Positions 9,061 to 34,900 of a stretch of DNA of 64,000 bases are shown here, in pieces. The DNA lies in contig NC_080559.1 in NCBI RefSeq assembly GCF_030253575.1, forward strand, positions 31,150,501 through 31,214,500. Direction: 5' to 3'. Origin of the DNA: Rhododendron vialii (lineage: Eukaryota; Streptophyta; Magnoliopsida; Ericales; Ericaceae). Under the pieces are notes generated by a model that worked only from the letters and a program-made list of their open reading frames with translations, searched no databases and was not told the origin of the DNA. The translations under genes were made by a program, and so were the position numbers. The stretch's first letter is position 1. Each line of letters opens with the position of its first letter.

Positions 9061-12400
<3,340 letters not shown>

Positions 12401-13439: not shown

Positions 13440-16400
13440 TCAGCCCTTTCTTTCTGAGTTCCTCCCTGCAAATTTTGAAATCATAGGCCTCCTGCCAGAT
13501 TTTCCCCTTCCAAACTTATTGATCTTCTTCTTCTGAGTGACCCCCCTTTTTCTCAGCTTTGCCAACTTCTCTTGCCTCCCATCTATATCAGCTTGAATAA
13601 CTTTTTTTCTTTTCGTATCCGATAGCAAAGCCAGCCTTGCGAATTTCTTTGGCTTCACTTGCCCTAACTTCTCATTTATGTCCTTGAAAGCAGGAACAAG
13701 GCCACGTCTCATAAAACACCCTTCAACTAGCTGCATTGAGTTTACCTCGGGGAGGTAGGGGCTGTTTTTCAACTCAAGGTCTAAGCAAAATGGCGAGTCC
13801 TTCAACCACATTCTAAGGGAATGTGCTTTTGCAACAAGGAGCCCACTCCTTGTTTTACTTGGCAGAAACGGTGAACCCATTTCCCAAAGGTATGCCTTCA
13901 ATGTGCTATTCAAGGAAACCTTGTTGTACTCCGAAGTCCCCGTTACAAGTCCAACAGATTTTGGAGATTCTGGGAAACCCTCCAGCGATGCGTCCTGCCG
14001 CAATTGAAGTCATCTATTAGGTGCAAAAAGAAGAAGAAAAAAAAACCCACAAAAACTGTAACCAAAAGAAAGATGATTGCACAAAATTCAGGAAATGGAC
14101 GTGATGATTCATCTGATGAGCCTGTCAGCAAATAATGTGAATGGTCTATGTAGCACCAGAAATGCAATTAGGGTAACAGCAGGTACAATTACAGTGCTTT
14201 AAGAAAAATAAATCATTAAAATAGGGGAAGAAGATGGCAAAGATCTATTGGCTACTAAGTTGCTACTTGAATATATTCTAGGACGACATAGTACATAAGA
14301 GGCCTTGCAATGTGATAAGAAGTCGTTATCTTTAAGAGCTCTGGAAAATTAGCAAAAAGTCCACATAAGCATCCCCATCTAATGGAATATGTAGCAAAAG
14401 GTAAGAAGAAAGAACAAGAAACTTGCTTGCATGTGATCAAGCCATAAAGTAAGACCAACAAGAGCTGCACCAGCAGACAACTTCCTAAAATCAGCTCCCC
14501 AGTCCTTGTCAGCTACCCTGCAACAAGAAGACAGGTAGTCGGCAAAACAATGAAAATGCAACTGGATCCAAACAGCAGTAACAGAGGCAAAGTGGCAAGC
14601 GCCGCCATCAAAATGGAAGGTCTGGTCTGACACACATAGAACATTTCAACTCGTTTTCTACGTACTTTCAAGTATTCCTCCCTCACCCATCTTCAGGATA
14701 GCAAAAAGCAGCTTGCCCACCATGGATGAGATGGAGTTTAATTTTTATAACTCTGCTTCCTAGCAGCGAGATAACATTTACTGATCCCAAAATGTGCTTT
14801 GTCATCATCAAAGTTACTTTATGCCCTCTAGACCATCCAACTATGGTCTATGGGTCATTTTCCATCATAAATTGATACAAAAAGATTTGCCTGCTAGCAA
14901 CATGGTAAAATATAACTTGTCGAGTAAACAGTTGGCCTCTTGAGAAGAATTATATCTTTTGCATGTAAAAACCAAATATACTATACAAATGCTACTTGAT
15001 GGTCCACTTGCACTTGTTGGTGGATAATGTGAATTCCCTGCGTACTTCTTGATGTAACCTATACTAACGTCGATAAAATCTAGGAAAAAGAATTAGCATA
15101 AAACAGAATTCAGCAGCTACCTGAACACGTCATGGCAATAAATGCTTCTCCTTATTGCCAGTTGAAAAACCCATGAAGCAGTGGCTCGGAGTTCAAATGC
15201 CCACAACAGATCTTCCAAAGCATTTACAAAGTTAAATGCTGCATTATCTTCTATATGTTCCAGTTTAGCAAGACACTGGTCTACCTCCAAGACTAGTGAC
15301 TCAGATTTTTCTGTCAGAAGCCTGTGAAAGCAATTAAAAGAAAGCACATTCCCAATCAGGAAAGATATGGAAGAAAACCAGACAACAGAGAAAGATAGTT
15401 CAACAAAAATTAAGAATACCTGAGTGGAAGATGAAAACCAGCATCTTCTAAAGCTTTTAACAAAATTACGGCTTCGTTTGTGCTCTGTGATAAACTTGAA
15501 GCCCTAATGAAGGAAGTCCATATCATGTGATCTGGCTCTAGACCTTCTCCCTTCATCTCTTGAAGCTTTTGAATTCCCATAGTATAATCTCCATTCTTGA
15601 GATAAGCATCGATGAGCGTACTATACGGTAGCAACATAAGATTTTCCCCCGTTAATTTCAAATTATTGAGCACTTTCTCAGCTTCAGTGGGATGACCAGA
15701 ACTGCCATACGAAACCATCAGCAAATGCATGGTAGCAATCGTTGGCTCCACTCCAGCTTCTTTCATCATGATTAGTAGCTTTTCAGCTTTAGAAAGGTCA
15801 CCAGAGCTTCTAAATATTTTCATCATTATGTGATATAACGAGCGATCAAGTTTATATCCTTTAAATCTCAATCCTTCAAAAAGTTCTTCAGCTTGTTCCA
15901 CCATCTGCTGCTTTCCAAATGCAGCAATCAGGTTTTTGTACGTGTCCAGCTTAGGGTCCAAACCTTGACTTCTCATTTCATGCATCAGTTGCAGACCTTC
16001 CTCTGGTCTGCGGTCCCTACAATACATCGATATTAAAGTATTGTATGTCTCCTCATCCGGTTTAAGTCCAGCTTCTTGAATTTGCTGGTATACTCTCACT
16101 GTCTTTTTAAAATCCTCAGTTTCTGTATATAACTTGAGTACAGAGTTCCATATCGAAAGGTCAGGCTTGAATCCTGCTTCCTCCATCTCAGAAACCATGG
16201 CTTCAACATCTTTTACTCTTTTCCCCTTTGACAAAAGTGCAATCATAACTCTATAAAGATGCATGGAAGGAAAATAACCTGCGGCCTTCATTCCGTGATA
16301 TATCTTTTTCACCTCAAATATGTTCCCAGCTCGGGCAAATGCATCAAGCATCAGAAGAATAGAACTCTTGCTAATCTGAAAACCCATATCTTGCAATTCT

Positions 16401-19000
16401 TGGATTACCACATAGAGTTCGTCTAATCTCCCATCCACAATCAAAGCTTGAAAGAGACCGTTTATGGTTTCCACGCTTGGGGAAGGACCATCTCTCATCA
16501 TTGTATTAAAAGCAGCTCTTGCTTTCTCATAGCAACCGCTTGCAGCATAAGCCTTTATTAGGGCATTCCAAGCCTTGCGATCCACTACACCGAATCTCTG
16601 TCTAAGAATTCCCACCAGACTCTCTGCTTTCTCAAGTACCTTTAACTTGCCATAAGCCTCTATGAGCCATACATAAAGGGAAACAGTCCTAGATTGGCTT
16701 CCCTTTTCTTCTGCTTGATCGATCAAATGATGAGCTGTTTCTGGGAAGCCCATTTTACAATACATAAGCACCATACTTTCACAAAGATTCTGGGAAGTTT
16801 CCACTCCATTAAATCTCATGTCAGAAAACACCTGCGAAGCTTCAGCAAACAGTTCAGTCTCCTCACAGGATTTAATAAGGGACTCATACATGGAAGGACT
16901 CGCATGAAATTTACTCAACCCCCTAGTTTTACTGTACTCTTCGAGGGCAGCATCCAGTTGATAAGCCTTACAATGGATAACAACTGCGGCTTCAGTTATC
17001 AATTGGTGGGAACCGGGTGCATGTTCTTTCATGAAATCCAGCAATTGTAGTGCTTCTAAATGTCTTCCTGCCAAGCTATATGAACTCGAAACAGACAGTA
17101 GGTTTTCATGGTCCAAATCATAACCCTGCAAAATAGCTTTTCTCAAAAATTCAGCCACATAGTCATAGCATTCCCCCTTGACAAGGATACTAGAAATGGT
17201 TTGCAGATCCAACTCACATTCTTCCATATCTTTGACCACTTTTTGAATATCTTCCTCTTTATTTTCTTTACCCAGTGCTAGGAGCAAAACCTCAAAAAGG
17301 GCTCGATCGGGTGTGAAACCATTAGAAACCATCTTATGATATAAGGCCATTGCCTTCGTGGTGTTGTTAGACCTAAGATGAATATCCAACATAACTGAAT
17401 AGGCTAGATGATCTGGCTCAATCCCAGACCTAAGCATGAGCTCAAATGTCTTTTCAGCCTCCAGCCGATTTCCAGATTTAGCATACCCACAAATTAATGC
17501 ACTGTAAGTCCATAAAGTGGGCTTGACACCTGCCTTAAGCATCTCTGACATCACATCAGCAGCCTCTGACATCATATTTGCTTTTCCTAGTGAATCTACA
17601 AGAACAGTATATGTCACCACATCAGGAATCCGGCTTGACCGTTGCATGTCTCTATAGAGTTGAAAAGCCATATCAGGCCGACCATTCTTCCCATGCATGT
17701 GGATCATAGTGTTATAAGTCATCTCATCCTTTGCAAACCCCTTATTCACCATTTCTTCACAGATTTTTTGTACCTTGCTCACATTACCTTCTCTTGCAAA
17801 TGCATAGAGCAGAGAATTATATGTCACTGCATCCGGAAAGAACCCTTTTGACTCCAATTCCTTAAAAAGTCTCTCAGCCTCGCTAGACAGACCACATCTT
17901 CCATAAACTGAGATCATAGCATTATAAGTCCATAAATCAGGTTGGCATTTGTGTGTTTCCATGTCATTATAAACCTTTACCGCCTCCTTCAAATTGGATT
18001 CCCTTGAACAAGCACTAATGAGTGTATTGTAAGTTACTATATCAGGTCGAATACCAGAGTTTCTCACATCATCTAAAAGATCAATCGCCAAGTTTGGCGT
18101 CATGGGCCCTGACTTGAGTCTAGCATTTATCAAAGTATTGAAGCTCACAAGGTCCGGCTCACACCCTCTCTCCCTCATCAAACCTAGAAGTTCCTGAACC
18201 TTAGTGAACCGACCGGTCCTAGCATAAACACTCATCATTGCATTGTAAACCTGGACAGTGTTACCCACCCCGGACCCCTCCCTAGAGAAAATCTCCACAG
18301 CTAAGGCCTCTTGTTTGGCCTTCCCAAGAACACCCAATATAGTTGCCAGCATCCGGGGATTACGAGCGTACCAATCCTGGACATTCAACCACTCGTAAAC
18401 CTCCATAGCACGCTGCCAGCTCGACCTCCCTACCGACTTCACTATGAAACAGAAATCTGCCAGCGTCATTTCCACTGTCCCATCATCCAACACATCACCC
18501 ACAAACTCCTCTGATTTCAAACTTAATACCCTAACTATCATAAACTGAACCCTCTGTCGCCAATCATTAGCCCTTTTTAGTGCCATGTTGGTCATTTTCT
18601 TTACCCTAGTCTTGCTAGGCCTACTACTACCCAACACTTCTAAGGTTTCACCATTTATGTTATTCCCCTTCTGGGTTTCCTCTCTACCCTCTAAATCTTT
18701 TTTATTTACAAGAGGGCCCGAATCGACGACACGGGTCGGTGGAGAAGGGGAAAAGGGGAATTGGGAAGGAGGGGAGTGGGGATGGGTGTCGGTGAGGTTA
18801 AGGTGGGGCCATCTCACGGATGGAGAGGACCTGCTGTAGCTAAATTTCTTTGGGGTTTCAGGTTCAGTTGTTGTACCAGTTGGAGTGGATGAAGAAGATG
18901 AGTAATCCAGAGAGCAGGAAGTAGGAGTGTTTACCTTGGATTTTTTTCTGCTGGGTTGGAGTGGTGGTGTGGTGGAGACCAGCACTCTCGTGCATGCCAT
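13440..19000 (-). CDS. EMB1270: P-class pentatricopeptide repeat protein, EMB1270-like (At3g18110 type)
   Basis: Organelle RNA-binding PPR protein. Arabidopsis EMB1270 is required for embryo development and acts in chloroplast RNA processing. Exons are 19000-15420, 15321-15121, 14517-14427 and 13994-13440; the joined frame gives about 1,475 residues. The open frame continues upstream to 19066, but only from a TTG; the first ATG is at 19000 and begins MACTRVLVST, a Ser/Thr-rich plastid-type transit peptide. Residues from about 220 carry more than twenty 35-residue PPR motifs (PDLVSFNTLI, PDIVTYNTLISACSR, PDLWTYNAMISVYGR, PDAVTYNSLLYAFAR). The conserved C-terminal region follows, with VADKDWGADFRKLSAGAALVGL, LRMWLKDSPFCLDLELK and a basic tail. 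Intron 3 uses a GC donor. No disabling change was seen. Identity comes from recalled family sequence and matching length. Confidence 0.92.
14425..14427 (-). promoter_or_regulatory. GC-type 5' splice site of intron 3 of the EMB1270-like gene
   Basis: The exon ends CACATGCAA and the intron begins GCAAGT. It ends with a normal CAG at 13995-13997. This is the only junction that keeps the conserved DHMQ-DASLEG protein sequence in frame. GCAAGT fits the usual consensus of the minor GC-AG class. Confidence 0.8.
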
Positions 19001-19025
19001 GCTCGCTCTCTCTCTTTCTCTCTCT

Positions 19026-19155
19026 CTACTGGACCCCTCTAATGCAAATTCCTTAGCAACAGCCAACCTCCAAAACCCTCCTCCGTTCTACTGGACAAAG
19101 CCCTCTAATGCAAATTCCTTAGCAACAACAGCCAACCTCCAAAACCCTCCTCCGT
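19026..19155. repeat. 62-bp tandem duplication in the EMB1270-like leader
   Basis: Two adjacent copies begin CTACTGGAC at 19026 and 19088 and share CTCTAATGCAAATTCCTTAG and CCAACCTCCAAAACCCTCCT. The second has small insertions. They lie just 5' of the start codon. Each carries AAAACCCT, part of a telo-box. Confidence 0.85.
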
Positions 19156-19167
19156 AAAGATACACAG

Positions 19168-19213
<46 letters not shown>

Positions 19214-19289: not shown

Positions 19290-19907
19290 TTTTTCGTTTT
19301 TTATATTTCGGGGCGCATAAAACGACATCGGTTGGGTCCTTAAGACTTCGCAGATTGAAAATGAGAAGTGAACCTGCATCAAGTAATTGGTAAATTGTAA
19401 ACTCATTTAGGGTTTATTTCTTGATCGAATCTGTTCAAGTTATAGCTATTGTCAGTGATATAAAACCTAATAAAAATCATGTGAATCTAAATCAGTTCAA
19501 GACTCAATCGAAGAGGATTTGTGAAAATTTATTTTTATGAAAATAGATTTGGCCTTACCGGATTAAATCCTTTCTATTAAAACGACGTCGCGCGCTATCT
19601 AAAGCTTCCATTACTGAAGTGCAGCAAGTAATCGGTGCTGGGTTTATTTCTTGATCTAATCTGTTCATATTGTATATCTTGTCAAGAAGATATACCATGT
19701 TAAATATGGTATTAATCGAATGACTTTAAATACATAATCGAAGCTGATGAGAGTGAATTTATTTTTATGAAAATATATTTGCCCACACTTGATTAAACCC
19801 GTTTCATTACGGAATAAATTCACTCCGGGGGAACACTCGTTATTACTTCCGTACAAGTCGGATTTCAACCGCCGGGCGATTGGGTATGTGCCTGGTTCCT
19901 CCTCGTC

Positions 19908-19961
<54 letters not shown>

Positions 19962-20020
19962 GCATATATAAGGTTACATGTGTTGATGTGGGTGTATAGT
20001 GTATCTGCTAGAGATTTGTT
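19290..20020 (+). repeat. Leader cassette, copy A
   Basis: First of three related segments (others at about 24240-25161 and 30790-31740), all on the plus strand. Shared landmarks in order: AAACGAC, AAGTAATTGGTAAATTGTAAACTC, GGGTTTATTTCTTGATC, GAAAATAGATTTGGCCTTACCGG, a second partial repeat of the same sequence (TTCTTGATCTAATCTGTTCA, TTTATTTTTATGAAAATA), and GCCGGGCGATT. Copy A also carries a long (CT)n(CA)n run at 19911-19963. The segment is the 5' leader or promoter region of the PPR pseudogene that follows. Confidence 0.75.
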
Positions 20021-20149
20021 TTGCAATATTCGAAGATAAATACTGTAATAATTTGATTGACTGACCCCAAAAAAAAAATTAATTTTAGAGTTCAGAAAAA
20101 AAGTTTGGAATTTGCTTAACCAAAGTGCTTTAAATTCAAGAAGTTTCTT

Positions 20150-21180
20150 TAATGCAGCCGCAGTTTCTGATTCCGATTGGGGATGTAAATTATGCACTCT
20201 GTTGAACCGTATTCGGTTCCATTCGTTCACGGCATCTCGCCCTTCTTCCCTGTTTGTCTGAAGTATCGCAATTCTCAAGGGTCACATAAAGTCCAAATTA
20301 TTGAATTCTTTATATCATCCCTTGTGATGGAATAGGGTCAAAGATTATTGTTTTAAGTTTTTCGAGTCATTTTGATAACCCAATGGTACACCCAAGTGGG
20401 TTGGAGAATGGAGAGGAACTGTCCCGCGAAGGGTACAATGATCTTTTATGTGAGCTTTGCAGATGGGGAGATGTTGCAGGGGTGGAGCCAGGAAAATCTG
20501 ACAGTGGGTCAATATTCCAAAAAAATTCTTAATCTTCTCCTTGTTTGTAATCGAAGATTGAATAGGTATTGCAACTGGAAAATTATTGGTGATTGATAGC
20601 TCTTAGGGAAGTGATATTGTGCTAAAAATGTCTCGATGTTCAAGAATTATGCGGAGAAGTTATTGAAAAATGTGTTTAGAACTCTAATTTCTTTAGCATT
20701 GGATGGGAATTATCCACATTTATTGACCGGTGGTTAGTGAAATTCTAGTGTTAAAAAGAGGGCAAATTTATAGTTTTAGTGGATTGCTTCATAATTGGGG
20801 CAATTTCATTAAAATATTGTAAAAATTAAACGAATTTGATAGGTAAATGTGGAGTCAGTAGGGTCAAGTGACCCCGCTTGACCCGTGGTAGCTCCTCCGC
20901 CCATGAAACGCTGACAATGCCATGTCATTGCTCGCTCGAATGGTGGTTGTGAGCTTTCGTCCAAACGCAACCGCTTACATCTGCTTGATTACAGCTTGTG
21001 GAAATGTTGGGAGGACTTCGGAGGCTAATGCGATTTTGCAAGATATGATCCGTTCAGGATTTAAGCCTAGACTGAATGCGTATAATGTTTTCTCAGATGC
21101 TTCTTGAGAAAAAGCCTCTTACGGGTTGCAAGTAAGGTTCTAGTGGAAATATATAAGGGTCGTTTACGTGGTGTTGGAAG
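20150..21180 (+). pseudogene. Truncated P-class PPR pseudogene, copy A
   Basis: Collinear with the first quarter of the PPR pseudogene at 31934-35122: 20160-20476 matches its N-terminal part (ELSREG, DLLCEL) and 20906-21180 matches FRPNATAYICLITA, NVGRT.EA.AILQDM and GFKPRLNAYNV. A hAT-like element (20477-20905) splits the two parts. The frame is broken at several points: a stop directly after the first ATG, a small deletion in the AYNVF segment, and shifts in the leader part. Everything after the third PPR motif is missing. Non-functional. Confidence 0.88.
20477..20905. mobile_element. hAT-like non-autonomous element inside PPR pseudogene A
   Basis: A 429-bp insertion relative to the parallel sequence near 32220. 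It starts CAGGGGTGGAGCCAGG and ends CTCCTCCGCCCATG, so the termini are imperfect inverted repeats of CA(G/T)GGG(T/C)GGAG. Flanks AGATGTTG and AAACGCTG are both close to the undisturbed AGATGCTG of the sister copy, consistent with a decayed 8-bp target duplication. No coding capacity. The superfamily call rests on the CAGGGG start and the 8-bp duplication. Confidence 0.7.
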
Positions 21181-21446
21181 TCATGGTGCTTAGGACATAA
21201 TCTTGAGTACTGCATGTTTCAGTAGAGTGTTTGGGTTTCATAACTATTCGGCTTAATCGCTCTAAGTAACGGTTTCATTGATTTGTCAATTTAATCAGTT
21301 CATGATTGAAAAGGTTTGTTCATCTACTACTGTTAATATCTAGGGCATACAAAGATTAAGCTTAATCGCCCTAATTAACGGATTGATTTAGTTTTCGTTT
21401 TAATCTATTGATTGGAAATTTTGTTTCTGTTTTTGTTTTTGCTTAG
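21181..21446. other. Spacer between PPR fragment A and the next gene fragment
   Basis: AT-rich sequence without a recognisable gene. Confidence 0.4.
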
Positions 21447-22640
21447 AACGCATCAGGTGCTGATGCTACTGCTGGTGATTTGAATGTATTTCAACTCATT
21501 CAATCTCACCAAGTACTTTCTTTGATTATACTCATAACTTCAGGAAAAAGGTGTAGTGGTTGGTGTTTTATGGGAACTGGCATGTTGGTTGTGATTGCAG
21601 GAGAAGGCTTTTAGGCTTGCCCCTGTTGAAGAAATTCGAACTGTTCCCGATCGCAGCTTGCGCGGCATGCTTTTCTACTTTCTCGTAGGTTTTATTATGC
21701 ACTAAGTATTTCATTAGTTTCTAACTTTATTTGGGGTAATGGGGGTTAATATTGTTTCATCAATTCCAATATCTTCGGCAATATTACTAGGTATAATATA
21801 ATCTTATACTAGTTTAGATAGGTATTGGCAATACTAATAATTGTAGGGATGCAGTTGAATTTGGTTCTTATTTGTCATGAAAGGTACTGAAATTGACTTG
21901 TAGATTGAGGTTGTCAACAATATATAGTGAAGTGGATAATATAGCCAATGATGCAGTTGCAAGCCTTAAATGCTTTCTTCTTCCATCTGTGTTTTTTCAG
22001 TGGCATCTTCCCTGATAGCTCGGATCATTTCCATGAAGCTTCTCACTATGTAGCCTCCCTCTATTCAACGTTAGTACTCTCACCAAAATGGTAAAGCCTT
22101 TTCAGATGTATGACCTTTACAAAATGTAAGTTACCAATGCTTTTTCCATTTTTTGTGCTTTTGTTTTAGTTGTGTGTTTTGATGGTGTGCGCGTGAATAA
22201 ATAAATATAATTTTTTTTTTTTACCGAAGGAAAAAGTTTTGGTTGTGCGTATTGTGTTTAGGTGGTTCTCACTTCTCTCAGGTTCTCTCCATAAGGTTAG
22301 TAATTCATACGCCAAGAACCCATAAGGTTTATCATGTTGTAGTGTTGGGTTGTCGGGTTTTCAGTTTTTTATTGCTTATGATTGTATGGCGGGTTTATGT
22401 GTCTAACATGGAATCAAGTATCTTTGAGTACCTTACATTATTTTGATTTTCATTCCTTAAGTTTCCTTTTCTCAGTCCACTGGTGTTTTGACCGGAGTAG
22501 TTGTTTGCCATCTTGTTGGTACAAGGGTATATAATCCACTGATTTTGAGGATCCAATTGATGCACATTTTAAACCCGTAACTGAAGATTTTGATGAAATG
22601 TCTATGCTCAATGAAATGTTGAGAGTGATTGTCATTTCGA
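21447..22640 (+). pseudogene. Gene fragment resembling glutamyl-tRNA reductase-binding protein (PGR7-type)
   Basis: Two exon-like blocks with intact splice borders: 21447-21512 (NASGADATAGDLNVFQLIQSHQ, ends AA|GTACTT) and 21601-21688 (after TGATTGCAG; EKAFRLAPVEEIRTVPDRS then RGML). Joined, they match the conserved segment before the split-barrel domain of plant GluTR-binding proteins as I recall it (VFQLIQ.H.EKAARL.PVEEIRTVLD.S..GML). An extra base after RGML and a stop at the exon end break the frame. A further block near 22540 (DPIDAHFKPVTEDF) could be a decayed downstream exon (family: DPIAQ..KPVTSH), which is weaker. No full gene is present. Confidence 0.55.
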
Positions 22641-23974
22641 ATACCTAGAGAAAGCCAAGAAATTATGTAGACCCCGTCTAATTTTTTTTGGTAAAATTAT
22701 TGACCAGTTGGTTTAGTTGACGTGTCCAGCTTTGATTTCCAAAAACTTAAACCTGTTTTTTTTAGCAAAAAAAATTAAACCTGTTTGGTTGATGATTTTC
22801 TATTCTTAATGTCACTGATTTTCCAGAAAATAAACTATTTGTTGAGAAAACCTCAAAAGAAACTTTTTAACAAATTGTGAAGCCGAACCCAAACAAGAAG
22901 TGATGCCAATTCCAAGGAGAAAAACTCTGAGATTCTGTCTGCTATGCATACGTTTTCCCTTTGGCCCGTAAAATATAAGCGATGTGCTATCATACAAGGA
23001 TGAATTTTGATGGCCTTCAACAATACTCCTGAAGTTGATTGGAATATGAAACTGTTCATCTACTTCTAGTTTAATGCCTTCCCCTGTGTAAGTCCTCAAT
23101 TTTGCAGTGCAGAATCATTCTATTCGATGTTCTTCAAGTTTGCAGTGAGTTTTGTAAATTACTCCCCGAATCCCACATTGGAAAAGTCTTCTGATTGTGT
23201 TATGTTTGATTCGACCTTTTCTTTTTAGCATAGCCGCAGGTTCCATAGATGTTGATTCTACTGATGCGGAGATATATGCTGCAACAACTGATTTTTCGCC
23301 AAACAGTGGTTCAAACACATTTATCCGAAAGAGCGGAAGAAGCTTATGGAAAATATCTGTGGCAGGTTGGAGGAAGAAATCCAAAAGGAGGCAGAGGGAA
23401 CAGAAGATGAGGGGACTTATGTGAGCAGTAGATGAGTGGGGCATGCTTTAGCCTTTATGTTGCTATAGGAGTTTTTCTTGGTATTTTTACTTGAGGAGTG
23501 TTTTCTTTTCTCTCTCTTTTCATGTTTTTTATTTTACCAGAAATAAAATTGATTTATATATAAAATGAAAATACAAAGGACCGGAACTTCATCGGTCCAA
23601 AAATACAGAAACACAAGAAGTTGTGGTAGCAGAAAGGATGTGATGAATGATAAACCAAGACTTGTTCCCTTTGATTGGAAAGTACTGTTCTTCAATGTAT
23701 CTATCTCTATTGCTAAAAGAGCTTGTGCATGAAACGTAATCTGGGAAGGTTAAGTTGTTTTCATTACTTTTTTATCATTCATACGAGAATGAAAATGATT
23801 TTCACACCCTCTCTTTTTATATCCACACACTTTCTTTCTTTCTTTTTTTTTGGCTAAAATACTTACTTTTTTTGGTACTTTCAAAAAAAAAATACACACT
23901 CTTTCAAGTTCCAATGTTAAAAAACAAAAAAAAATAAAGTGTGAATATCAAATACTCCTATGTCTTTAAATAAT
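22641..23974. other. Unassigned stretch with one exon-like open block
   Basis: The block from about 23229 to 23400 on the plus strand follows a possible acceptor and encodes SIAAGSIDVDSTDAEIYAAT in an open frame. I do not recognise it. The rest is AT-rich. Confidence 0.3.
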
Positions 23975-24200
23975 GGCCCTGTTCCAGTTTTCAAAATAAG
24001 TGCTTATTTTCAAGCTTAAAAATAATAAGTTTATAGAAATCAAAAAATTACAATTTGGATTTTTTTTTGATAGATTTCAATGAGATATTTCGAACAATGT
24101 AAAAAAAAATTGAAAATTTATTTTTGTAAATATATTATTTATAAGTTTAAAAAAATACAATTATTACTTATTTTTTAAGAAGATAAAGTGGGACGGAGAT
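23975..24200. mobile_element. MITE relic, GTTCCA-type family (copy 1)
   Basis: AT-rich segment bounded by GGCCCTGTTCCAG and, inverted, CCGTCCCAC. It shares internal order with the segment at 62385-62625: AAGTGCTTATTTTCAAGC, then a GATATTT/GATCT block, AAAAATTGAAAA, TTTTGAGTTTAAAA-like text and CTTATTTTTTAAGAAG. Both copies are non-coding and degenerate. The target duplication was not resolved. Confidence 0.5.
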
Positions 24201-24239
24201 TAACTAGTAAATAAGTGGGTTCAATATAAGACTGTTTTT

Positions 24240-25161
24240 TCAATTTCTTATTCTGGGCCGACTAAAACGATGGCGGCGGGGTCTTATTGATACCTCGCGT
24301 CTTCAATCCCGGAGGTCCATTGAAACGGCGTCGCTCTAATTTCATTAAAACTTCTCAGGTTGAACATGCGAAGTGTATATACAACAAGTAATTGGTAAAT
24401 TGTAAACTCAATTTGGATTTATTTCTTAATCAAATCTGTTCAAGTTGTAGCTATTGCCAATAATATATAACCTGTAAAAAATAATGTGAATCTAATGACT
24501 TTAAAATGCTCAATCGAAGAGGATTTGTGTAAATTTACTTTTATGAAAATAGATTTGACCTTACCGGATCAAACCCATTTTATTATCGAGACTACGCAGG
24601 TCGCGTGGAGGTCCTTTAACGGTAAATTGTGAACTCATTCGGGGTTTAATTCTTGATCGGAATTGTTCAAGTTGTAGAAATTGTCAAGAAGTTAAACCAT
24701 GTTAAACATGGTGTCAATCGAATGATTTTTAGTACATGATCGGAGATGATGAGAGTGAATTTATTTTTATGAAAAATAGATTTGGCCACAGTTGATTAAA
24801 CCCGTTTCACTGTGAAATTCTGTATTAGTAAATTCACTCCGAGGGAACACTCAAGTCGGATTTCCACCGCCGGGCGATTCGGTATGTGCCTGATTCCTCC
24901 TCACGTCTCTGCTTATATATGCTTATTTGTGGATGTGGGTGTATAGTGTATCAGCTGCTAGATTTTTTTTCTTTTTGGTAACGGAGGAAAAACTCTGCAA
25001 CCGACCCAATATTGGACCCGACTGCGCAATCCAAACCTCGGGGAGATTAGCACAGCAACTCACCGCCATAGCTCCCACTTAAATCATAGTTTGTTTCTAT
25101 GGGGAATCGAACCCTGCGACGTTGCAAGCGCAGGTGTTCAGCTGCTAGATTTGTTTTGCAA
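24240..25161 (+). repeat. Leader cassette, copy B (joined to unrelated sequence)
   Basis: Carries the same ordered landmarks as copies A and C (AAACGATGGCGGCGGGGTC, AAGTAATTGGTAAATTG, GGATTTATTTCTTAATC, GATTTGACCTTACCGGATC, GTCGGATTTCCACCGCCGGG). Similarity runs to GATTTGTTTTGCAATAT and stops at about 25161. After that point the sequence is unrelated to the PPR gene that follows copies A and C. A SINE is inserted near the 3' end. Confidence 0.75.
24970..25137 (-). mobile_element. 5'-truncated tRNA-derived SINE inside leader cassette B
   Basis: Read on the minus strand, the insert contains GGTTCGATTCCCC, a tRNA-type B-box, near its 5' end and finishes in an A-rich tail (AAAAAGAAAAAAAA). It is flanked by direct repeats of about 12-13 bp around CAGCTGCTAGATT (24952-24964 and 25138-25150). 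The parallel text in cassettes A and C lacks it. The A-box region is missing, so it is probably 5'-truncated. Confidence 0.7.
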
Positions 25162-25336
25162 TATGGATACAGTCCGTGTTGATGTACTCAATGATCACAT
25201 AGGTGTCGAGGAGGAAGAAGACTATCGCGATGCATTTAGTAATGATGACGATGACATGATTGATGTCCAGACTTCTGGTGATGAACTTCCAGATGAAGAT
25301 GATATGTCATTTTACGGTGATAGTGAGGATGAATAG
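25162..25336 (+). CDS. Small acidic ORF downstream of leader cassette B (unrecognised)
   Basis: Starts with ATG at 25162-25164, right at the point where similarity to the PPR leader ends, and encodes 57 residues ending at the stop at 25334-25336. The protein is strongly acidic, with runs such as EEEEDYRDAF, NDDDDMIDVQ and a GDSEDE C-terminus. I do not recognise the family; the last part resembles acidic leaders of several nuclear proteins. It may be the displaced first exon of another gene. With the cassette upstream it could be transcribed as a chimeric mRNA, but nothing in the sequence proves expression. Confidence 0.35.
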
Positions 25337-25791
25337 TAGCAGTACCATGTCCTTTTTTGCCATGCACATATTTCAAATGTAAAGGTTAAACATTATTGGA
25401 AGTTATCGTTTTGCCTCTCTGTATATGAAAGTTGCTACGATTTCTCACTCATATTCATTTAACCCTTATTTTATGCTATGCTTCATATCAGGTTGTTTTA
25501 AGTCAACTTCCAGTATACTCCAAAACAAAATGGTTGCAACATGCTTTCCAATGATGCTAGTGAGTATTCCTTACTTTTTCTATTGATATTGTTATAAACT
25601 TGCAACTGGGCAAAAAATAGTGATGATGCATAGTTTTATTTGTGCTATACTTGAAGGTTGGAACATATAATTGTGTTATACATTGCATATTAGATTGAGA
25701 TATGGTTTCGGATTGTATGGTTTTTGGGTTTCACACATAGTGAATGCTGTCAGGAAGTGGTTGTTAATGTCTGATGTTCTCCTTTTTTCAG

Positions 25792-26034
25792 ATTACAGAT
25801 GTTTGCTCAGCTTGCTTTGAGCAGCGCACAGTTTTCACACAACAGGTCTTGGCAAAGGCCTTGAACCAAATGGTACGCCAAAGTCATGCTTGCACAAATT
25901 GGAAGCTTCTGGACATTATTTCAAGTTACCCTTTTTTTTTTTTTTCTTTCTTGTTCTCAGGTTGACCAAACCCCTTTACCTCTTCTCTTCATGAGTACAG
26001 TAATTCAAGCAATTGATGTTTTTCCTTCGCTGGT
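25792..26034 (+). pseudogene. Symplekin (Pta1-like) gene fragment, two exons
   Basis: Exon-like blocks 25792-25872 (CSACFEQRTVFTQQVLAKAL then NQM) and 25961-26034 (VDQTPLPLLFMSTVIQAIDV then FPSL) have proper AG and GT borders and the same frame. They match the C-terminal conserved region of symplekin, a scaffold of the pre-mRNA 3'-end cleavage and polyadenylation machinery. The family's next block (VDFVMEIL.KLV) is not found downstream, nor are other symplekin exons upstream. It is therefore an isolated genomic fragment with its intron retained, not a retrocopy. Confidence 0.8.
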
Positions 26035-27857
26035 AATTATTACCGCCTTTTGGTGGTTAAAGTCTTTCTTAGTTAGCTTCTCTGTGTATGCATCGAGTTT
26101 ATTTTGGTTTATAGTCTGATGACTCTGATTGATGAACAACTTTCTTCGGTAGCTCATGTATATTAAGTTGAGGTCACGCAGACAGTACCTTACGATAGTA
26201 ATTCACCCCCTTTTAGTACCTAGTAGGGAGGATACTCGCTCACATACTGTTCCCACTTTTTTTGGGTAGTCCCAATTAATTATGTGTCTATGTTGTTGGC
26301 CTTGTGCTGATAATTTGATTCACTGCTGCCTTTGTAAAAAGTAGTGAGAATAGAATTGCTTCTTCTGGAGGTCTACTTGAGCAAGATTGACTCGGTATAT
26401 CAGAGCATCACCATGCATTTATTGGACTTTGATTTGCCTCTAGCCAAACCCTCTGGAAGGGGGAATATCGATTGAAAAATGATTGGATTGTACTTTTTTA
26501 GTTTGTTGAATTCATTTGAAGAAAGGAACGAAAAGTTAATGGTTCTTTTATAGCGTGATCCTGTGGCTGCTGCTAACAAACTACGACTTGATGTTTCATA
26601 AAAATCCGACTACCAAAACTTATAATTCTAGACTACAATTGTCTTTGGACTTGTAGTAGTTTAAGATGGGTACAATAAGAATGTAGGATTAACTGCATAC
26701 AAGTCTCTTACGTACAGGAGCTGGGGCAGTTTAGTGGTAGTTACAAACGTCTGTTTTGTGAAAACATTGAATTTGAACTAGCGAATACTGTGCTTAAATG
26801 GACTAACAGAATCTTACTGCTGGAATAACTAAAAGAGTTGTACAAACAGTGAGTTCCAATTAATTTCATAATCCTATACTAACCAAGACACCTACATCTC
26901 TCAGTAGCTTTCACGAAATAACACTTTTGCACCTTCTGGAGATTGACGCCTTTCCCCTTTTAACCGACAGCCAAGAAGGGGAATAATAGATTTATTGATT
27001 TCCATGGTTTGATGCTCTGAAACTGTCTAATACCGTGTTACCATTTACATCCTGAATATCGCTTCACATTGGTAGTAAAACTGCTTTTCAGTGTTGTCCT
27101 GGTTTGTCCAAAAGTTGACATTTTGGGTCAGTTGTGACTTTTGTGCTTGTAGATGTCATTTTTTGGAAATGATATACTATAAGAAGCTGCTGTTGAACTG
27201 TGTGTAAGAGACTCAAGGCTTACAAGAATCTCATTTTTTCTGTGAGGCCAAGGGTATTTTAATGGTTGCCTGTATGTGTGTGGTTATATCTAGAGTCAGT
27301 AAACAGGTATGGCTGTCGGCTTACTCTTTTCGTTCCGTATAATATGCATATCTTGTGGCTTCACAAGCAGTGATACTGATTGTCTCCACTACAGATGTTA
27401 CCATGTCTAGAGCAACTCATTATAGTTAGTGTAAACCAGTTAAGGGCTCTATTGCTGCTCGATTTCTTTGGGCTTGGTCCAGTCACAATCTACGCGCTAA
27501 CTAGTTGGGATATTCATGTTTAGTAGTGTAATCAATTATAAATCATTGACTATAATAATTTGTAAAGCTCTTTATTGTGTTACGTATATGCAGATTGCTC
27601 AACAATCGATGGTGATCATTTGGTGCATGGAGATACAATATTGGAGTAGGAGATAGGAGATGAACAATGTTTTTGGAGGACAAAACTACTATTTGCCTTT
27701 TGTTTTGGTACTTCTAGATGGAAGAAGAAGGATGCCTTTAGTTTTCGGTATATAACAGTACATATTACAAGTAGTCCCTGGAATATGGTTTTTGTTCGAG
27801 GTATTGAAGAAGACTAAGGTTAAGATACTATGTTTTGACTATTTGAAATGGTTTTAA
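26035..27857. other. Long stretch without a recognisable gene
   Basis: I see no conserved coding blocks or clear transposon ends. It may include non-exonic remains of the same segment that brought the symplekin exons. Confidence 0.4.
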
Positions 27858-28395
27858 ATTGATGTTATGCTATTGCCTCTTTTTTTTTTGATCCACTTAT
27901 GCTATTGCCTCTTAGTTTGATGAATTATGTCTTTTGAAATCATTACAGGAAGCAAAAAGGGGACATCTAGCAATGAGTTTTTAGTTTGTAGCCAAAAGAT
28001 TTTTTTTTTTTTTTCCAAAAAAAATCCTCGCTAAAAGAAATTTCTTTTTTGCGAGGGACAAGTTTCTTTGCAAAAAAGGATTCACTGGTTTTGTCAAAAA
28101 AAATTGTCTTTGGTGTGGTATTTCTTCCTTGGAAAAAGTAAGACTTATTTTTGCAAAAGAAATCGTCTTTTGAGAGGAATATGTTCCTCGATCTTCTTCT
28201 TTTTTTTCGCGAGGAAACACTTTGTCCCCAATGATATATTTTTTGCAAGGAACGGTGTTCTTTGGACGACAAATGTGTTTAATATTAGCGTTCAATTAAT
28301 TTCCTCGCAAAAATAAATAAATTCAGAGACTACCTATCTGCAAGGAACAAGCGACGAATGAAATTTCCTTGCAAAAGGATTTTGGCGAGGGCTGG
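27858..28395. mobile_element. CACTA-like relic, partial copy 1
   Basis: Contains CATTACAGGAAGCAAAAAG (27944 onward), similar to the CACTACA(A/G)GAAA ends of CACTA elements, and many copies of CCTCGCAAAA / TTTTGCGAGG in both orientations, typical of CACTA subterminal repeats. The first 270 bases and parts of the rest are repeated from 29118 onward, including flank upstream of the putative end. No transposase frame. Confidence 0.5.
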
Positions 28396-29117
28396 ACTAT
28401 TTGCAACCACAAATTCATTATACGTACCCTATATTAAAATAAATCACTTTCGGAGAAAAATGTCCTTAAAAAATGGACAAAAATACCTTAAGATTACTAA
28501 ACACAATCCCCTCATCTTCCTCCCTCCCTCCCACCAGTTCCACCACAACCACCATCGGTTCGTCCCCTCCCCCCGTTTCCACCATAACCACCACCGGTTT
28601 CAAAATTGCTGCTACGACGTCGAACCCACCACCGGTTCCCCCCATCCCTCCGTTTCCACCATACCCTTTAGCAGCAATTTTGCTTCTCGAGAGTAAGGTT
28701 CTGTTCCGAACCTACCCGCCTGAACCCATTAGTGTGTTGTTTACAAAGTTCAGATGAACCCTCAAACGAATGGATTAATCGTTTTTCGATCCAGTTTCAT
28801 GTGTACGGAACTCGCATTTCTTCACCGACGACCCAGTCCCATCGCGCATTAGCAAAATACGTGATGTTAATCGCGCATTAACAAAATACGTGATATTAAT
28901 TGCACATTAGCAAAGTACGTGATGTTAATCGCACATTAACAAAATACGTGATGTTAATTGCACAATAGCAAAGTGCTTGATGTTAATCATGCATTTGGAA
29001 TTTGCGTTTTTAACAGTTGAATCTACGTTTTTAACCAGAAAAAATATGTGACGCATCTTCAACGTGCGTTATAAAGTGTTTCGGGTTTTAGAATCTAAAT
29101 TTTGTGAACATTTTAAG
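28396..29117. other. Spacer with low-complexity ORF and a 29-bp minisatellite
   Basis: The open frames around 28460-28757 are Thr/Pro/Ser-rich low complexity without motifs. The minisatellite at 28843-28987 is listed separately. No gene assigned. Confidence 0.45.
28843..28987. repeat. Minisatellite, 29 bp x 5
   Basis: Five consecutive 29-base units, each built on CGC(A/G)CATTA(G/A)CAAAATACG followed by TGATGTTAAT. Units 3 and 5 begin TGCACA instead of CGCRCA. No length variation between units. Confidence 0.92.
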
Positions 29118-30665
29118 AGGTTAATGTTATGCTATTGCCTTTTTTTTTTTTTTTTGATCCACTTATGCTATTGCCTTTTAGTTTGATGAATTATGTCTTT
29201 TGAAATCATTACAGGAAGCAAAAAGAGGACATCTAGCAATGAGTTTTTAGGCCATCCACAGTGGTATAATCAAAAATGGATAACCAAAAGTTGACACATC
29301 AGCTTTTGATTATTCACTTAAGAGATTGCTAAGCTTAACAATGTTGAGGTTCACAATGGTCACTTCTAGTCCATAACCAAAATAAGGGGTCCACTACAAT
29401 TTCACACAATCTCTCTCTCCCCTTTTGTTTCCCGCCATTCACTTCCCTCCATTACGTTTTTTTTTTGGGCAAAAATATATCGAATATATGGTGTTCTTTC
29501 TAGTGTTATCTATCAAAACAACACCGATTTTTTTTTCTTCCTATTCCTATAGCCTATATCACAAATCCACTACTCTCTTAATCTTTCAAAAAAAAAAAAT
29601 CAGATATGTTCTTAAATTTGGAAAAGAATGCAAAGTTCTTCCTCTTTTTTTTTTTTTTTTTTTGCAAGGTTCTTTGTTTACTCAACCATAGGGGGAGGAA
29701 CAAAAAAAATGAATAACCACTTTTTAGTGGAAAAAATCAATTTTTTTTTGCTAAAAAGTGATTATTTATCAAAATACTTGGGCAAAAGTAAAAAAAAAAA
29801 AACTTTTCCCGATTCCTCTCGTTGAGACGAATTAATAACCTATAAAAGTTTGGCGCAAAACTAAAAAATGCAAAAAAAATTCAAATAAAGATAATTTTCA
29901 GATTTAAGTTAAGTTTAAGTTAAATTCATAATAATGCAGCCTAAAATAGAAACGTAAAAGAAGAGTAAAAGACCTTAATCCAGCAACGATGAGTTAAATT
30001 ATAGATGATCGAGAAATATAAGCTTCACTTTTGGAGGAAAAGAAAGAGAAACAGTTTGTAGTTGAAGTGAAGAAGATATAAAGCAAGTGAAGAAGAGAAG
30101 AATAAAATAGTAGTTGAAATACATGTGTATATAAATTTTGGAATTAGTTAACTTATGCAGTGTGAGGTTCACAAATTTTGATTATTGAAAAAATTGCTAG
30201 TTTTGGTTATCCAAAGCCCAAAATTTGATTATTTCTAAGGATGTTGCTAAGTTTGATTATACCATTGTGAGCCATTTTTTGCACAAATATTGTTAACTTT
30301 AACAACAATTATCTTTTGGTTATACCACTGTGGATGGCCTTAGTTTGTAGCCAAAAGATATTTTTTTATTTTCCAAAAGAAATCCTCGCTAAAAGAAATT
30401 TCTTTTTTGCAGAGGGACAAGTTTCCTTGCAAAAAAAGATTCACTGGTTTTGTCAAAAGGAATTATCTTTGGTGTGGTATTTCTTCCTCGCAAAAGACAC
30501 ATTTTTGCAAGCAAATAAAATCTCCTCGCAAAAAAAAAAACCCCGGAGACTACCTATCTGCGAGTAACAAGCTACAAACGAAATTTCCTTGCAAAAGGAT
30601 TTTGGTGAGGAACATTTTGGATTTTGCGAGGAATTGTCGCAAAAAGCTTGATTTCCTGTAGTTGC
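29118..30665. mobile_element. CACTA-like relic, copy 2, interrupted by a Tourist-like element
   Basis: Repeats the sequence of 27858 onward (ATGTTATGCTATTGCC through ATTACAGGAAGCAAAAAG and ATCTAGCAATGAGTTTTTAG), then resumes after the inserted element at 30340 with TAGTTTGTAGCCAAAAGATA and the CCTCGCAAAA repeats. At 30649-30665 GCTTGATTTCCTGTAGTTG is an imperfect inverted match to CACTACAGGAAATC, so it may be the right terminus. Non-coding. Confidence 0.55.
29250..30339. mobile_element. Tourist-like (PIF/Harbinger) non-autonomous element, 3-bp TTA TSD
   Basis: A 1,090-bp element with perfect terminal inverted repeats GGCCATCCACAGTGGTATAA at the left and the reverse complement at the right. 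It is flanked by TTA at 29247-29249 and 30340-30342. The empty site is visible in the sister copy near 27980 (GAGTTTTTAGTTTGTAG), which confirms both borders. A TTA duplication and GGCCA-type ends fit PIF/Harbinger Tourist elements. No transposase or Myb-like frame seen. Confidence 0.92.
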
Positions 30666-30789
30666 ATGAGAGCATTGAGAGGTTGTGTTGGATTATTGTG
30701 TGAGGATCATTTTTGTTCAGCATAAGATCCAACGGAGAGAGAAGCGAGATGCGTGAATTAAATTATCATCGGTGCCATTTGTTTTATCA

Positions 30790-31740
30790 ATTTTTATTCC
30801 GGACCGATTCAAACGACGTTGGCGGGGTCGTATTAACGATACCTCGCGTTTTCAACCCGGATGTCCATCGAAACGGCGTCGCTCTAATTTCATTAAAACT
30901 TCGCATTTTGAAGATTAGAAGTAAACCTTTAACAAGTAATTTGGAAATTGTAAACTCAATTTGGGTTTATTTCTTGATCGAATCTTTTCAAGTTGTATAT
31001 ATTGTCAATAATATAATACCTATAAAAAATCATGAGAAACTAATTATGTTTAATGCTCAATCCAAGATGATTTGCGTGAATTTATTTTTGTGAAAATAGA
31101 TTTGGTCTTACCAGATCAAACCCATTTCATTAGTGGGACTTCGCAAGGTCCCTTAAAACGACGTCGCACGTATCTAAAAGCTTTTAAGGTCCCTTAAACC
31201 CATTTGTGAAAATAAACAATTTACTGTTTATTTGTTTGTTGGTCGGAATTGTTCAAGTTGTAGAAATCGTCAAGAAGTTATACCATATCAAAGATCATGT
31301 TAATCCAACAACGATTTAGACACAATCGGGGACGATCAGAGTGAATTTAATTTTGTGAAAATAGATTTGGACACACTGGATCAAACCCATTTAGGGGATA
31401 AATTTCTTTAGCGAGGCAACACCCGTTTTTATTTCCGGCGGCCGGTTCAATTCGAGTCGAATTTCCAGCGCCGGGCGATTTAAATATTTATATACGTGTA
31501 TGCTTATTTGTGGAGGTGGGTTTATGTATATCTTTGTCACATAGTCCTTCAATTTGCTCTCAAATCATTTGCTCTGCACTCAGCGTTATCAATGCTCGCA
31601 CTAGCAAATTTTAGTTGTTTGGGAGGTTTTGGATGGATGCTTTCACGCTCGTGCAGGCGTTCCCACACCCGCCCGCGCATTATGTGACTTAGTTGTGTAT
31701 TGTATCAATTGCTAGAGATTTGTTTTCAAGATTCGAAAAT
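30790..31740 (+). repeat. Leader cassette, copy C
   Basis: Third copy of the leader segment, in front of the longest PPR pseudogene. Landmarks: AAACGACGTTGGCGGGGTCG, CGAAACGGCGTCGCTCTAAT, GGGTTTATTTCTTGATCG, GAAAATAGATTTGGTCTTACC, GCGCCGGGCGATT, GCTAGAGATTTGTTTTC. Contains the same internal doubling as copies A and B. Confidence 0.75.
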
Positions 31741-31933
31741 AAATTCTAATTTGATTGACGACGTTTGATTTTTTGGTGTTTTTGTAATTCCAAAATACTA
31801 TGCGTGTGCAAATGAACTGTGGAAAGTAGCTATTAGAGTTAAAAAAATGGTTTGGAATTTGCTTGACTGAAGTTTTAAAATTCAAGAAGTTTCTTCAGTG
31901 CTGTACAGCCACGGTTTCTGGTTCCTATTGGAG

Positions 31934-34900
31934 ATGCAAATTATGTTCTCTGTTGAACCGTTCTCGGTTTCATTCGTTCATGGCATCTCGCCCTTCTTCC
32001 TTGTTTGTCTGAAGTATCTCAAGGGTCACACAGAGTCCAAGTTCTTGAATTCTTTACATCATCCAGTGGGATGCAATAGGGTCAAAGATTGTTGTGTTAA
32101 CACCTTTAGGAGTTTTTCGAGTCCCTTCGAGAACTCAACAGTATACCCGAGTGGGTTGGAAAATAGAGAGGAACTGTCCCGCGAAGGGTGCAATGATCTT
32201 TTATGTGAACTTTGCGGATGGGGAGATGCTGACAATGCCTTCTTGTTGCTTGCTCGAATGGAGGCTGTGGGCTTTCGCCCAAATGCAACCGCTTACATCT
32301 GCTTGATTACAGCTCTTGGAAATGTTGGGAGGACTTTGGAGGCTGATGCAATTTTGCAAGACATGCTACGTTTAGGATTTAAGCCTAGGCTGAATGTGTA
32401 TAATGTCTTGCTCAGATGCTTCTTGAGAAAAGGCCTCTTGCGGGTTGCAGGTCAGGTCTAGTAGAAATAGATAATTTGGGTATTGGGAGGAATCGAGAAA
32501 CATATGAGATACTTCTAGATTACTGTGTCCACTCCGGGCGCTTGGAAGATACATGGACAATTATTGGCAAGATGAGGCGAGAGGGGTTTCAACTAAATTC
32601 TTTTGTTTATAGCAAGGTTATTCGGCTTTATAGGGACAATGGGATGTGGAAGAAGGGAATGGGCATTGTGAGAGAAATAAAGGAGATGGGGGTTTCACTA
32701 GACAAGAAGATTTACAATAGCATCATCGATACATTTGGAAAATATGGTGACTTGGGTGAAGCCTTAGAGGTGTTTGAGAAAATGCAAGAAGGCGGCATAA
32801 AACCAGACATCACGATGTGGAATTGTTGATTAAATGGCATTGTAACTCTGGGTATATGGATCGTGCTCTTGAACTGTTTACTAAGATGCAGGAACAAGGG
32901 CTATATCCTGATCCAAAGATATTCAGTGTGCTCATTAGTCGTTTGGGGGAGCAGGGTAAGTGGGATACAATAAAGTACAACTTTGAGAATATGAAATGCA
33001 GAGGGCACCAGAAAAGCGGAGCCATTTATGCAGTTTTGGTTGATATTTATGGGCATTATGGGAGATTTCAGGATGCAGAAGAGTGTGTAAATGCCTTAAA
33101 AGTAGAAGGCATTCAGCGTTCAGCCAGCATCTTTTGTGTGCTAGCAAATGCTTATGCTCAACAGGTGTGTTTCCCCTTTTGTTAGCTGTGCTGATTTTCT
33201 TTGAAAGTTATATAACCCTAGGATATAAATTGTTCCTTTTATGTTCCTGTGTATATTATATAATATCTCTTCACCATCAGCCTTGGTATATTCACGTTTA
33301 GCCTTGGAACTGGTTGGCGCTCTATACTTCATTACTTGAAATCTAGAGGCATAGAGGTAATGTTGAAAGACTTTGGCAATGGGAAGGGGATGATTAGTTT
33401 GGCATAAATTACGTTATTTCTACCAGTAAAGACAAAATATGTCATTACCCTTTAAAAGCCACGACTGAGCTATGAGCATGCTGTTTATAATTTAAAAGGT
33501 TGGTTCGCTGAAGGAATCAAATGTCGTATAGATAAGACATGGTGACACCTCCTGTCTGTATGCCTTAATATGGATTTGAAATACTATCCAGCAACAAAAG
33601 CATTTTGGTTTCATTTCAAGTTGCTTTTGGTGCGGGAATGGCCAAGGTTTCAAACTGTTAGGGGAACTGGGGAAGGCACCTTTGCCACACAGTTTGGTGC
33701 TGTAAGTTTCTTTCTGTAGTTCGAACTTACGGTTCAGTATTTAATGTGTCATACCAATTCGCAGAGTCATACTTACCGTAATACTTAATGTTTGGTATAC
33801 TTCTGTTCACTAATAACTATGTTTCGGAACAATAAGAACTACTAAGAGTGTCATCCTTAGTTTGGTGACAATAATTTGCGAGATTTGTGGATCATTTCAA
33901 CGTGATGCAAAATTCCAATTATTTGATTACTACTTTCTTTGTGTGATGAAATATTGCATGATGTTGTAGTCAAGATACTTGCCAGATGTTGGGGCTTTGC
34001 CTTCTTATTCGATGTGGTTAATTATTTGACTTTTAATGCAGGGATTGTGTGAGCAGACTGTAAAGGTCCTTCAGCTCATGGAAGCAGAAGGAATTGAACC
34101 AAACCTTATAATGCTGAATGTGTTGATCAATGCATTTGGAGGCCCTATCTGTTTATCATTGCATAAAAGAAAGTGTAGGACCTCATATTTCTTCACGTAC
34201 TTGATTCTAAAACAATAATCTTCAAGTCAGTTTTTTGCTGACAATGATCTTGCCGTTTTGAAGGGTATTAGTCCTGATGTGGTTACCTACGGGACGCTCA
34301 TGAAGGCATTTATAAGGGCAAAGAAATTTGACCAGGCGTGTTATTCCTTTAGTGTTGAGCCTACAATCATCAATTTACTCAACATGTTGAAGGAAAATGT
34401 TTATAGTACCACACTCATTGCAAGTTTTGCATATACCACCTGGTTCATTTTTGCTTTATGCTTCTTGCTTCTCGGAATTTCCTGAAGATGTATTAGACAA
34501 TTCAACGTTATTGCATGGTAGAGAGTGCAGTTCATGCAACCCTCAACTATGTAATGTGACATGAACTGTCATGTTCGAGTGTAATGGACAGAGTCTTGTG
34601 TCTAGGAGACAGTTCTTTTGATCCGAAAATGATAGGACACCATGATTTAGTTTAATTATTGGTGCCTAAATTTGATGACCACATTTTAGGGCAAAGTGAA
34701 ATAGTAAATGTATTTGTGTCCAACATGGTTACTCAGCTAATATTGAATTGTCCAGTCAGCCAAATAGATATAAGTATTGTTCTTAGTAAGTATATAAACT
34801 AGAGAATTATACGGGGACATTTGTGGTGGATGTGTCAATGCAAGCGTGGTTGCCTTGTGTCCACGATGGATTCTCCATTTCTCCTACTTCATCTTTTTTT

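What the first reader, a model, noticed from the sequence alone, without database searches (positions are those of the whole stretch)
19290..31740. One leader cassette present three times, each joined to a different fate
Three plus-strand copies of a roughly 0.7-0.9 kb segment share ordered landmarks ending in GCCGGGCGATT and GATTTGTTTT. Copy A precedes a truncated PPR pseudogene, copy C a longer PPR pseudogene, and copy B an unrelated acidic ORF plus symplekin exons. The simplest reading is tandem duplication of a PPR locus followed by replacement of the body in copy B, which would supply a ready promoter to foreign sequence. This is the least ordinary structure in the window.
Basis: partly seen in the sequence, partly recalled or inferred. 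Interest (0 to 1): 0.72.

Follow-up and report, generated by a model that had tools for sequence, protein, structure and literature searches.

The report
Repeated PPR leader, one CACTA-hijacked copy
In this plant chromosome a roughly 0.7 kb leader segment, one of many relatives scattered over the genome, sits three times in a row; two copies still precede broken PPR genes, while the third runs into the tail of a decayed CACTA transposon that carries a piece of the symplekin gene, which is a tidy example of known processes rather than a new system.

Summary
Leaders A (19337-19904), B (24233-24919) and C (30721-31481) are homologous (71-77% identity; blastn 297-448 bits, shuffles at most 34). 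The PPR-duplication reading is partly right: A, C and a fourth copy on contig 8 have the leader ahead of broken PPR sequence. B has no PPR body, but the 'acidic ORF' is no independent gene: it is the C-terminal tail of a CACTA transposase (DUF4216/DUF4218). CACTA-derived sequence, composite and with other repeats nested in it, runs from 25161 to a right terminus at 30662, 58 bp before leader C. It carries 1.6 kb of the symplekin gene copied from contig 7, a known kind of event (transduplication). A tRNA-type SINE splits the end of leader B. The leader is not PPR-specific: a core word occurs 191 times genome-wide (control 3), and leaders lie near TOM20, SufE, NifU-domain, RRM/zinc-knuckle and WD40-like genes. 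I found no target-site duplication at its edges, no clear extra conservation over flanks, and no gene-proximity enrichment over control repeats, so 'mobile element' and 'selected promoter' both remain unproven. Whether leader B drives the CACTA/symplekin sequence is untested.

The parts
15410..19087 (-). PPR gene (1225-aa open frame, first ATG about 19000) divergent from leader A
19337..19904 (+). Leader A (the first ~100 bp shared by B and C is not matched); further shared tail 19993-20061
20085..21156 (+). PPR pseudogene A: 5' part only, pieces in three frames, homology ends at 21156
20477..20909 (+). 433-bp insertion in PPR A, hAT-MITE-like ends (CAGGGGTGGAG / imperfect inverse); 8-bp flanks alike at 5 of 8
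   Evidence: class is inference
24233..24919 (+). Leader B
24966..25137 (-). tRNA-type SINE, 172 bp, inserted in the end of leader B; 15-bp target-site duplication TCAGCTGCTAGATTT at 24951 and 25138; B-box GGTTCGATTCC on the minus strand
25138..25162 (+). Remaining tail of leader B, ending TTTGTTTTGCAATAT at the junction
25161..25753 (+). CACTA transposase C-terminal tail and following sequence (88.5% to the C1 copy over 25161-25703, 87.0% to the C13 and C9 copies over 25161-25708); ORF 25163-25336, 57 aa
25754..27382 (+). Symplekin gene piece with introns, matching C7:37553592-37555494
27408..28390 (+). CACTA right arm: 27408-27699 matches C13/C9 at 87.6%; 27408-28312 matches 13 other places at 68-72%, 10 of which carry the CACTA terminus right after it
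28397..29114 (.). Stretch that matches other dispersed places (79-84% over 28397-28592, 79% over 28957-29114), apparently another repeat
   Evidence: reading as an insertion is inference
29121..30662 (+). Second copy of the CACTA right-terminal segment (29121-29250, 30340-30510 and 30519-30610 repeat 27859-28390), with the right terminus TTTCCTGTAGTT at about 30662
29249..30343 (+). Nested high-copy element with inverted ends GGCCATCCACAGTGG and TTA target duplication (PIF/Harbinger-like)
   Evidence: class is inference
30721..31481 (+). Leader C
31517..31832 (+). Leader-to-PPR stretch shared with C8; 31555-31694 is a dispersed repeat not matched in A or B
31833..36209 (+). PPR pseudogene C; 31868-36209 collinear with the C1 PPR copy (83.9% over 4492 columns); frameshifted near 32458 and 32823

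Best explanation
A leader+PPR gene unit was duplicated on this chromosome (at least an A/B-type and a C-type) and also exists on contig 8; the three leader-bearing PPR copies seen here (A, C, C8) are broken. A CACTA (En/Spm, TNP2-type) transposon carrying a genomic copy of part of the contig-7 symplekin gene lay between leader B and leader C. A deletion then joined the end of leader B to the last coding part of the CACTA transposase, probably by end joining at a 4-bp ATAT microhomology, and removed the left part of the CACTA and the PPR body of B. A SINE hit the end of leader B, and other repeats broke up the CACTA right arm. The leader belongs to an old dispersed family whose copies tend to be duplicated together with neighbouring genes. 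Shown by sequence: homologies, borders, symplekin source match, missing PPR body, family size. Inferred: direction of the symplekin copying, order of events, one deletion as the cause, any transcription.
For: Leader homology and clade. Leader+PPR together in A, C and C8. No PPR in B. CACTA identity: DUF4216 E 5.1e-25 and DUF4218 E 4.6e-20 in the C13 relative of the B tail (L003; the C1 and C9 copies show alike upstream DNA), collinear at 25161-25708 and 27408-27699. Right arm 27408-28312 matches 13 other places, 10 of which carry the terminus segment within about 50 bp after it. Right terminus: of 16 other genome places aligned to the left part of the query, 12 stop exactly at window 30662. 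Symplekin: 91.1% over 1573 aligned columns to C7 (blastn pieces 85-93%), Symplekin_C E 5.9e-28 and a solved symplekin chain E 6.1e-17 for the C7 exons. SINE with perfect 15-bp TSD. Leader family: 191 core matches against 3 for the control.
Against: No orthologous region of another species could be compared. No left CACTA end was found: a 17-base terminus had no hit with 3 or fewer mismatches in 19-37 kb and two hits with 4, at 25993 and 33330, so a CACTA fragment brought here by another rearrangement is not excluded. The right arm is composite, with its terminal segment present twice, so more than one CACTA event may be involved. The A-B pairing is weak (82/60). A 4-bp microhomology can be chance.
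Confidence: 0.8

Rival explanations
1. Promoter capture: leader B is an active promoter that now drives a new chimeric CACTA-tail/symplekin transcript with a function.
For: Leader B reaches the junction; an ATG lies at 25163, just after it, with a 57-aa open frame. Tgm-Express1 in soybean shows that gene pieces in a CACTA can be spliced into transcripts (PMC1947982, abstract and outline seen).
Against: The ORF is only the CACTA transposase tail and has no Pfam hit. The SINE sits between most of leader B and the junction. Leaders A, C and C8 head broken PPR sequence. The symplekin piece covers only part of the C7 stretch fetched and of the Symplekin_C profile.
Confidence: 0.07
2. The leader is itself a non-autonomous transposable element (MITE-like dimer) that landed near genes many times; the three copies are separate insertions, not PPR-locus duplicates.
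For: Dispersed family: 191 core matches; 53 matches besides the query itself at 65-83% with 40 of 244 candidates scored; near unrelated genes.
Against: No direct-repeat excess at the edges: mean longest repeat 5.73 against 5.86 in permutations, 218 of 300 as high. A, B, C and C8 form one clade (100/100), and A, C and C8 share sequence beyond the leader into PPR. The spread of the family as a whole is not explained by this.
Confidence: 0.2
3. Leader and CACTA are joined only by misassembly at 25161.
For: Only one assembly is available.
Against: No N in the 64-kb window; the SINE with perfect TSD lies across the leader end; the CACTA right end lies just before leader C.
Confidence: 0.04

Closest known systems
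CACTA transposons carrying host gene pieces (transduplication; soybean Tgm-Express1, PMC1947982, abstract and outline seen; grapevine Cactavine, PMC2528002, passages seen; Pack-TYPE elements, PMC8903248, start of abstract seen in the listing only)
   Same: CACTA transposase domains in the relatives, a CACTA terminus, and a host gene piece with exons and introns; a grapevine passage also mentions cargo that would give transcripts antisense to PPR genes
   Different: Here the left part of the element is missing and its broken edge is joined to a PPR leader; among 22 matches to 25480-27000 only the window and the C7 source hold the long symplekin piece
Tandem duplication and decay of PPR genes
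   Same: Several broken PPR copies near a long open PPR gene
   Different: A fourth copy on another contig is the sister of C in the leader tree, and the copy with an open first exon (C1, L062) has no leader in the 10 kb fetched
tRNA-derived plant SINE
   Same: B-box, A-rich 3' end, 15-bp target duplication, many diverged genome copies
   Different: No difference seen
Transposon-derived or shared promoter modules
   Same: Related sequence near the 5' ends of several unrelated genes
   Different: Neither mobility nor promoter activity is shown here; the leader matched no Rfam family and no held paper turned up

Membership tests
CACTA (En/Spm) transposon | TNP2-type transposase with DUF4216/DUF4218 | tested here: met
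   Met in the relative L003, 87% identical to window 25161-25708; only the tail remains in the window, which itself has no Pfam hit. The link of these domains to CACTA is recalled
CACTA (En/Spm) transposon | Terminal CACTA...TAGTG ends | tested here: met
   Right end only, at about 30662, with one terminal change; L072 reads TTGTAGTG there; motif recalled. Left end not found
CACTA (En/Spm) transposon | 3-bp target-site duplication | not testable with these tools
   Left end is missing
Transduplicated host gene piece | Intron-containing copy with a source elsewhere, lying inside the transposon | tested here: met
   C7 source; CACTA sequence on both sides
tRNA-derived SINE | Pol III B-box, A-rich tail, target duplication, dispersed copies | tested here: met
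   A-box not tested
MITE (for the leader) | Target-site duplications at the borders | tested here: not met
   borders uncertain by some tens of bases, so weak as a rejection. Terminal inverted repeats were not tested
Conserved promoter module (for the leader) | Slower divergence than flanking sequence | tested here: inconclusive
   In 8 pairs of related copies the leader was below the upstream flank in 6 (the other two upstream flanks are 21 and 69 columns) and below the downstream flank in 5, above it in 3. Four pairs come from one gene group, and some flanks may be coding
PPR gene | PPR repeats | tested here: met
   for C and its C1 relative; A by tblastn

The most novel reading that the evidence does not exclude
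The leader is an undescribed dimeric module (two roughly 180-bp cores, an AAAACGACGTCG-like word and a 25-bp palindrome like ACTTCTCAGGTTGAACCTGAGAAGT) that spread long ago into the 5' regions of many unrelated nuclear genes, often between divergent genes, and serves as their shared, co-inherited two-way promoter. Copy B would then show such a module handed to transposon cargo.
Probability: 0.15. Interest if true: 0.65.

Novelty: new member of a known kind. Interest (0 to 1): 0.36.

Why it matters
It shows base by base how a duplicated gene head can become fused to transposon cargo, most simply by a deletion ending inside a CACTA. It also brings up an unclassified leader family near unrelated genes, whose promoter role and mode of spread can be tested directly with RNA ends and with related genomes.

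Tried and rejected
Structured RNA: Rfam at E up to 1 over 19000-36500 gave 2 matches, both far below gathering scores (26.1 of 90 and 21.5 of 100 bits); rejected. RNA hairpin: a palindrome of at least 9 pairs with at most 2 mismatches was found in 17 of 30 leaders; arms mix TCTC and GCGA forms without strict pairing, which looks more like a pair of half-sites; no covariation test was run. Retrocopy of symplekin: rejected, since introns are kept and CACTA lies on both sides. Gene-proximity enrichment: ORFs with non-transposon Pfam hits in 7 of 27 leader loci (5 ORFs each, 135 in all; loci assigned) against 5 of 17 control repeat loci (5 ORFs each, 85 in all; loci assigned): no enrichment. Three further control candidates (L047, L050, L056) were left out because they lie at C8:4.38-4.45 Mb, near the C8 leader. 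Literature, judged from titles: motif words (20 listed of 26 papers), six longer words (no paper), shared-promoter terms (12 listed of 15): nothing on such a leader family.

My first family alignment used minus-strand loci unturned and was discarded; redid it. The leader search scored 40 of 244 candidates and the SINE/B search 40 of 193, so counts are lower bounds. Of the 191 pattern places 100 are listed. One search did not settle the right arm because the nested repeat filled its list (40 of 4907 candidates scored); redid the part without it.

Full report
Setting. The window lies in a 532.6-Mb, 13-contig genome (C3:31150501-31214500). The genes are plant genes.

The observation. Self-comparison confirms three collinear plus-strand leaders, far above shuffled controls. 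In B a core of about 180 bp occurs twice (24394-24580 and 24621-24807, 73% alike), and A and C show the same pattern. Ahead of the first core an AAAACGACGTCG-like word was found in 26 of 30 leaders, and a palindrome of at least 9 pairs in 17 of 30.

PPR association. A is followed by 5' PPR sequence (20085-21156) interrupted by a 433-bp insertion. C is followed by PPR-gene sequence to 36209 with frameshifts. C8:4.383-4.389 Mb has a leader followed, after about 3 kb, by PPR-gene pieces. A copy on C1 (L062) keeps a 444-aa open first exon but no leader core lies in the 10 kb fetched; sequence related to window 5973-12283 lies up to about 85 bp before it. In a tree of 30 leaders, A, B, C and C8 form one clade (100/100), C and C8 pair (100/97), and A and B pair weakly (82/60). 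So leader and PPR travelled together, but the array is not three simple steps. C and C8 also share a stretch (31517-31950 / C8) containing a dispersed repeat at 31555-31694 that is not matched in A or B.

Copy B. The end of leader B carries a 172-bp SINE with a perfect 15-bp target duplication and a B-box; 36 of the 40 matches are this SINE part. Reading past it, leader B continues to TTTGTTTTGCAATAT and then runs into sequence found on C1, C13 and C9. In the C13 copy the sequence continues upstream into a protein with DUF4216, and further up DUF4218, domains of CACTA TNP2-type transposases (the link of these domains to CACTA is recalled); the C1 and C9 copies look alike upstream. The acidic ORF is the tail of that protein. 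Window and C1 copy share ATATGGAT at the junction, and leader A has ATAT there, so end joining at a 4-bp match is a fair inference. No PPR sequence is found between A's and C's.

Symplekin. 25754-27382 matches C7:37553592-37555494 in three pieces, introns included, at 91.1% over 1573 aligned columns. The C7 exons hit Symplekin_C and the solved symplekin chain 6v4x_J. CACTA sequence flanks the piece on both sides (25161-25708 and 27408-27699), so it is transposon cargo. Of 22 matches to 25480-27000, only the window and C7 hold the long piece; 27000-27382 was not searched.

Right arm and end. 27408-28312 matches 13 other places at 68-72%; in 10 of these 13 the terminus segment follows within about 50 bp. 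In the window a stretch that matches other dispersed places (28397-29114) comes between, and then a second copy of the terminal segment (29121-29250, 30340-30662), itself split by a very abundant 1.1-kb element with inverted ends and a TTA target duplication (29249-30343). Sixteen other places aligned with the end stop between query 161 and 171, 12 of them at 163, which is window 30662; the sequence there is the inverse of CACTACAGGAAATC with one terminal change. Leader C homology starts at 30721. No left end was found. So the stretch is CACTA-derived but composite.

The leader family. The word TAATTGGTAAATTGTGAACTCAT with up to 3 mismatches occurs 191 times in the genome (control 3), often in local clusters. 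Within 1.5 kb of leaders, or in longer fetched stretches, lie a 1225-aa PPR gene (A), TOM20 (C8), SufE (L024), a NifU-domain gene (L034), an RRM/zinc-knuckle gene (L025), glutaredoxin (L028), a phosphoesterase piece (L014) and WD40-like exons (L065). I recognise ALG2-, NEDD1- and U11/U12-31K-like proteins by eye; these names are recalled. By my arithmetic a start codon lies about 84-337 bp from the leader in five cases (SufE, RRM, ALG2-like, NEDD1-like, the PPR gene at A) and about 970 bp away at TOM20. Tests of what the leader is were negative or flat: no target duplications, no clear difference from flanks in divergence, no gene-proximity excess over control repeats. Several tree clades join neighbours on one contig (L015/L016, L019/L027, L026/L036, L034/L038), others join contigs (L028/L029; L013 with L017/L020, which share an ALG2-like first exon). 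That copies are duplicated with their genes is my inference.

Known or new. CACTA elements that carry host gene pieces are described in soybean (PMC1947982, abstract) and grapevine (PMC2528002, passages). The mosaic is therefore a new example of known processes. The leader family matched no Rfam model and no held paper in my searches, which says little, since repeat libraries and other plant genomes could not be searched.

Noticed in passing
L003 (C13:21203090-21206420) and L004 (C9:16098016-16101346): Two CACTA copies on different contigs are 100% identical over 3331 bp: a very recent transposition or an assembly duplicate.
   Followed up: partly
window 29249-30343: Very abundant 1.1-kb element (4907 first-look candidates, 40 scored) with GGCCATCCACAGTGG ends and TTA target duplication.
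   Followed up: partly
L062 5610-6941: The only PPR relative seen with an open first exon lacks the leader; sequence like window 5973-12283 lies just before it.
   Followed up: partly
window 19025-19155: Roughly 65-bp tandem duplication (90%) at the 5' end of the 1225-aa PPR gene.
   Followed up: no
C11:33365594-33620501: Leader cores recur at intervals of tens of kilobases on one strand near a NifU-domain gene, as if a gene array were amplified with its leader.
   Followed up: no
window 24005-24182 and 62430-62607: A repeat shared within the window (77%) and with L062.
   Followed up: no
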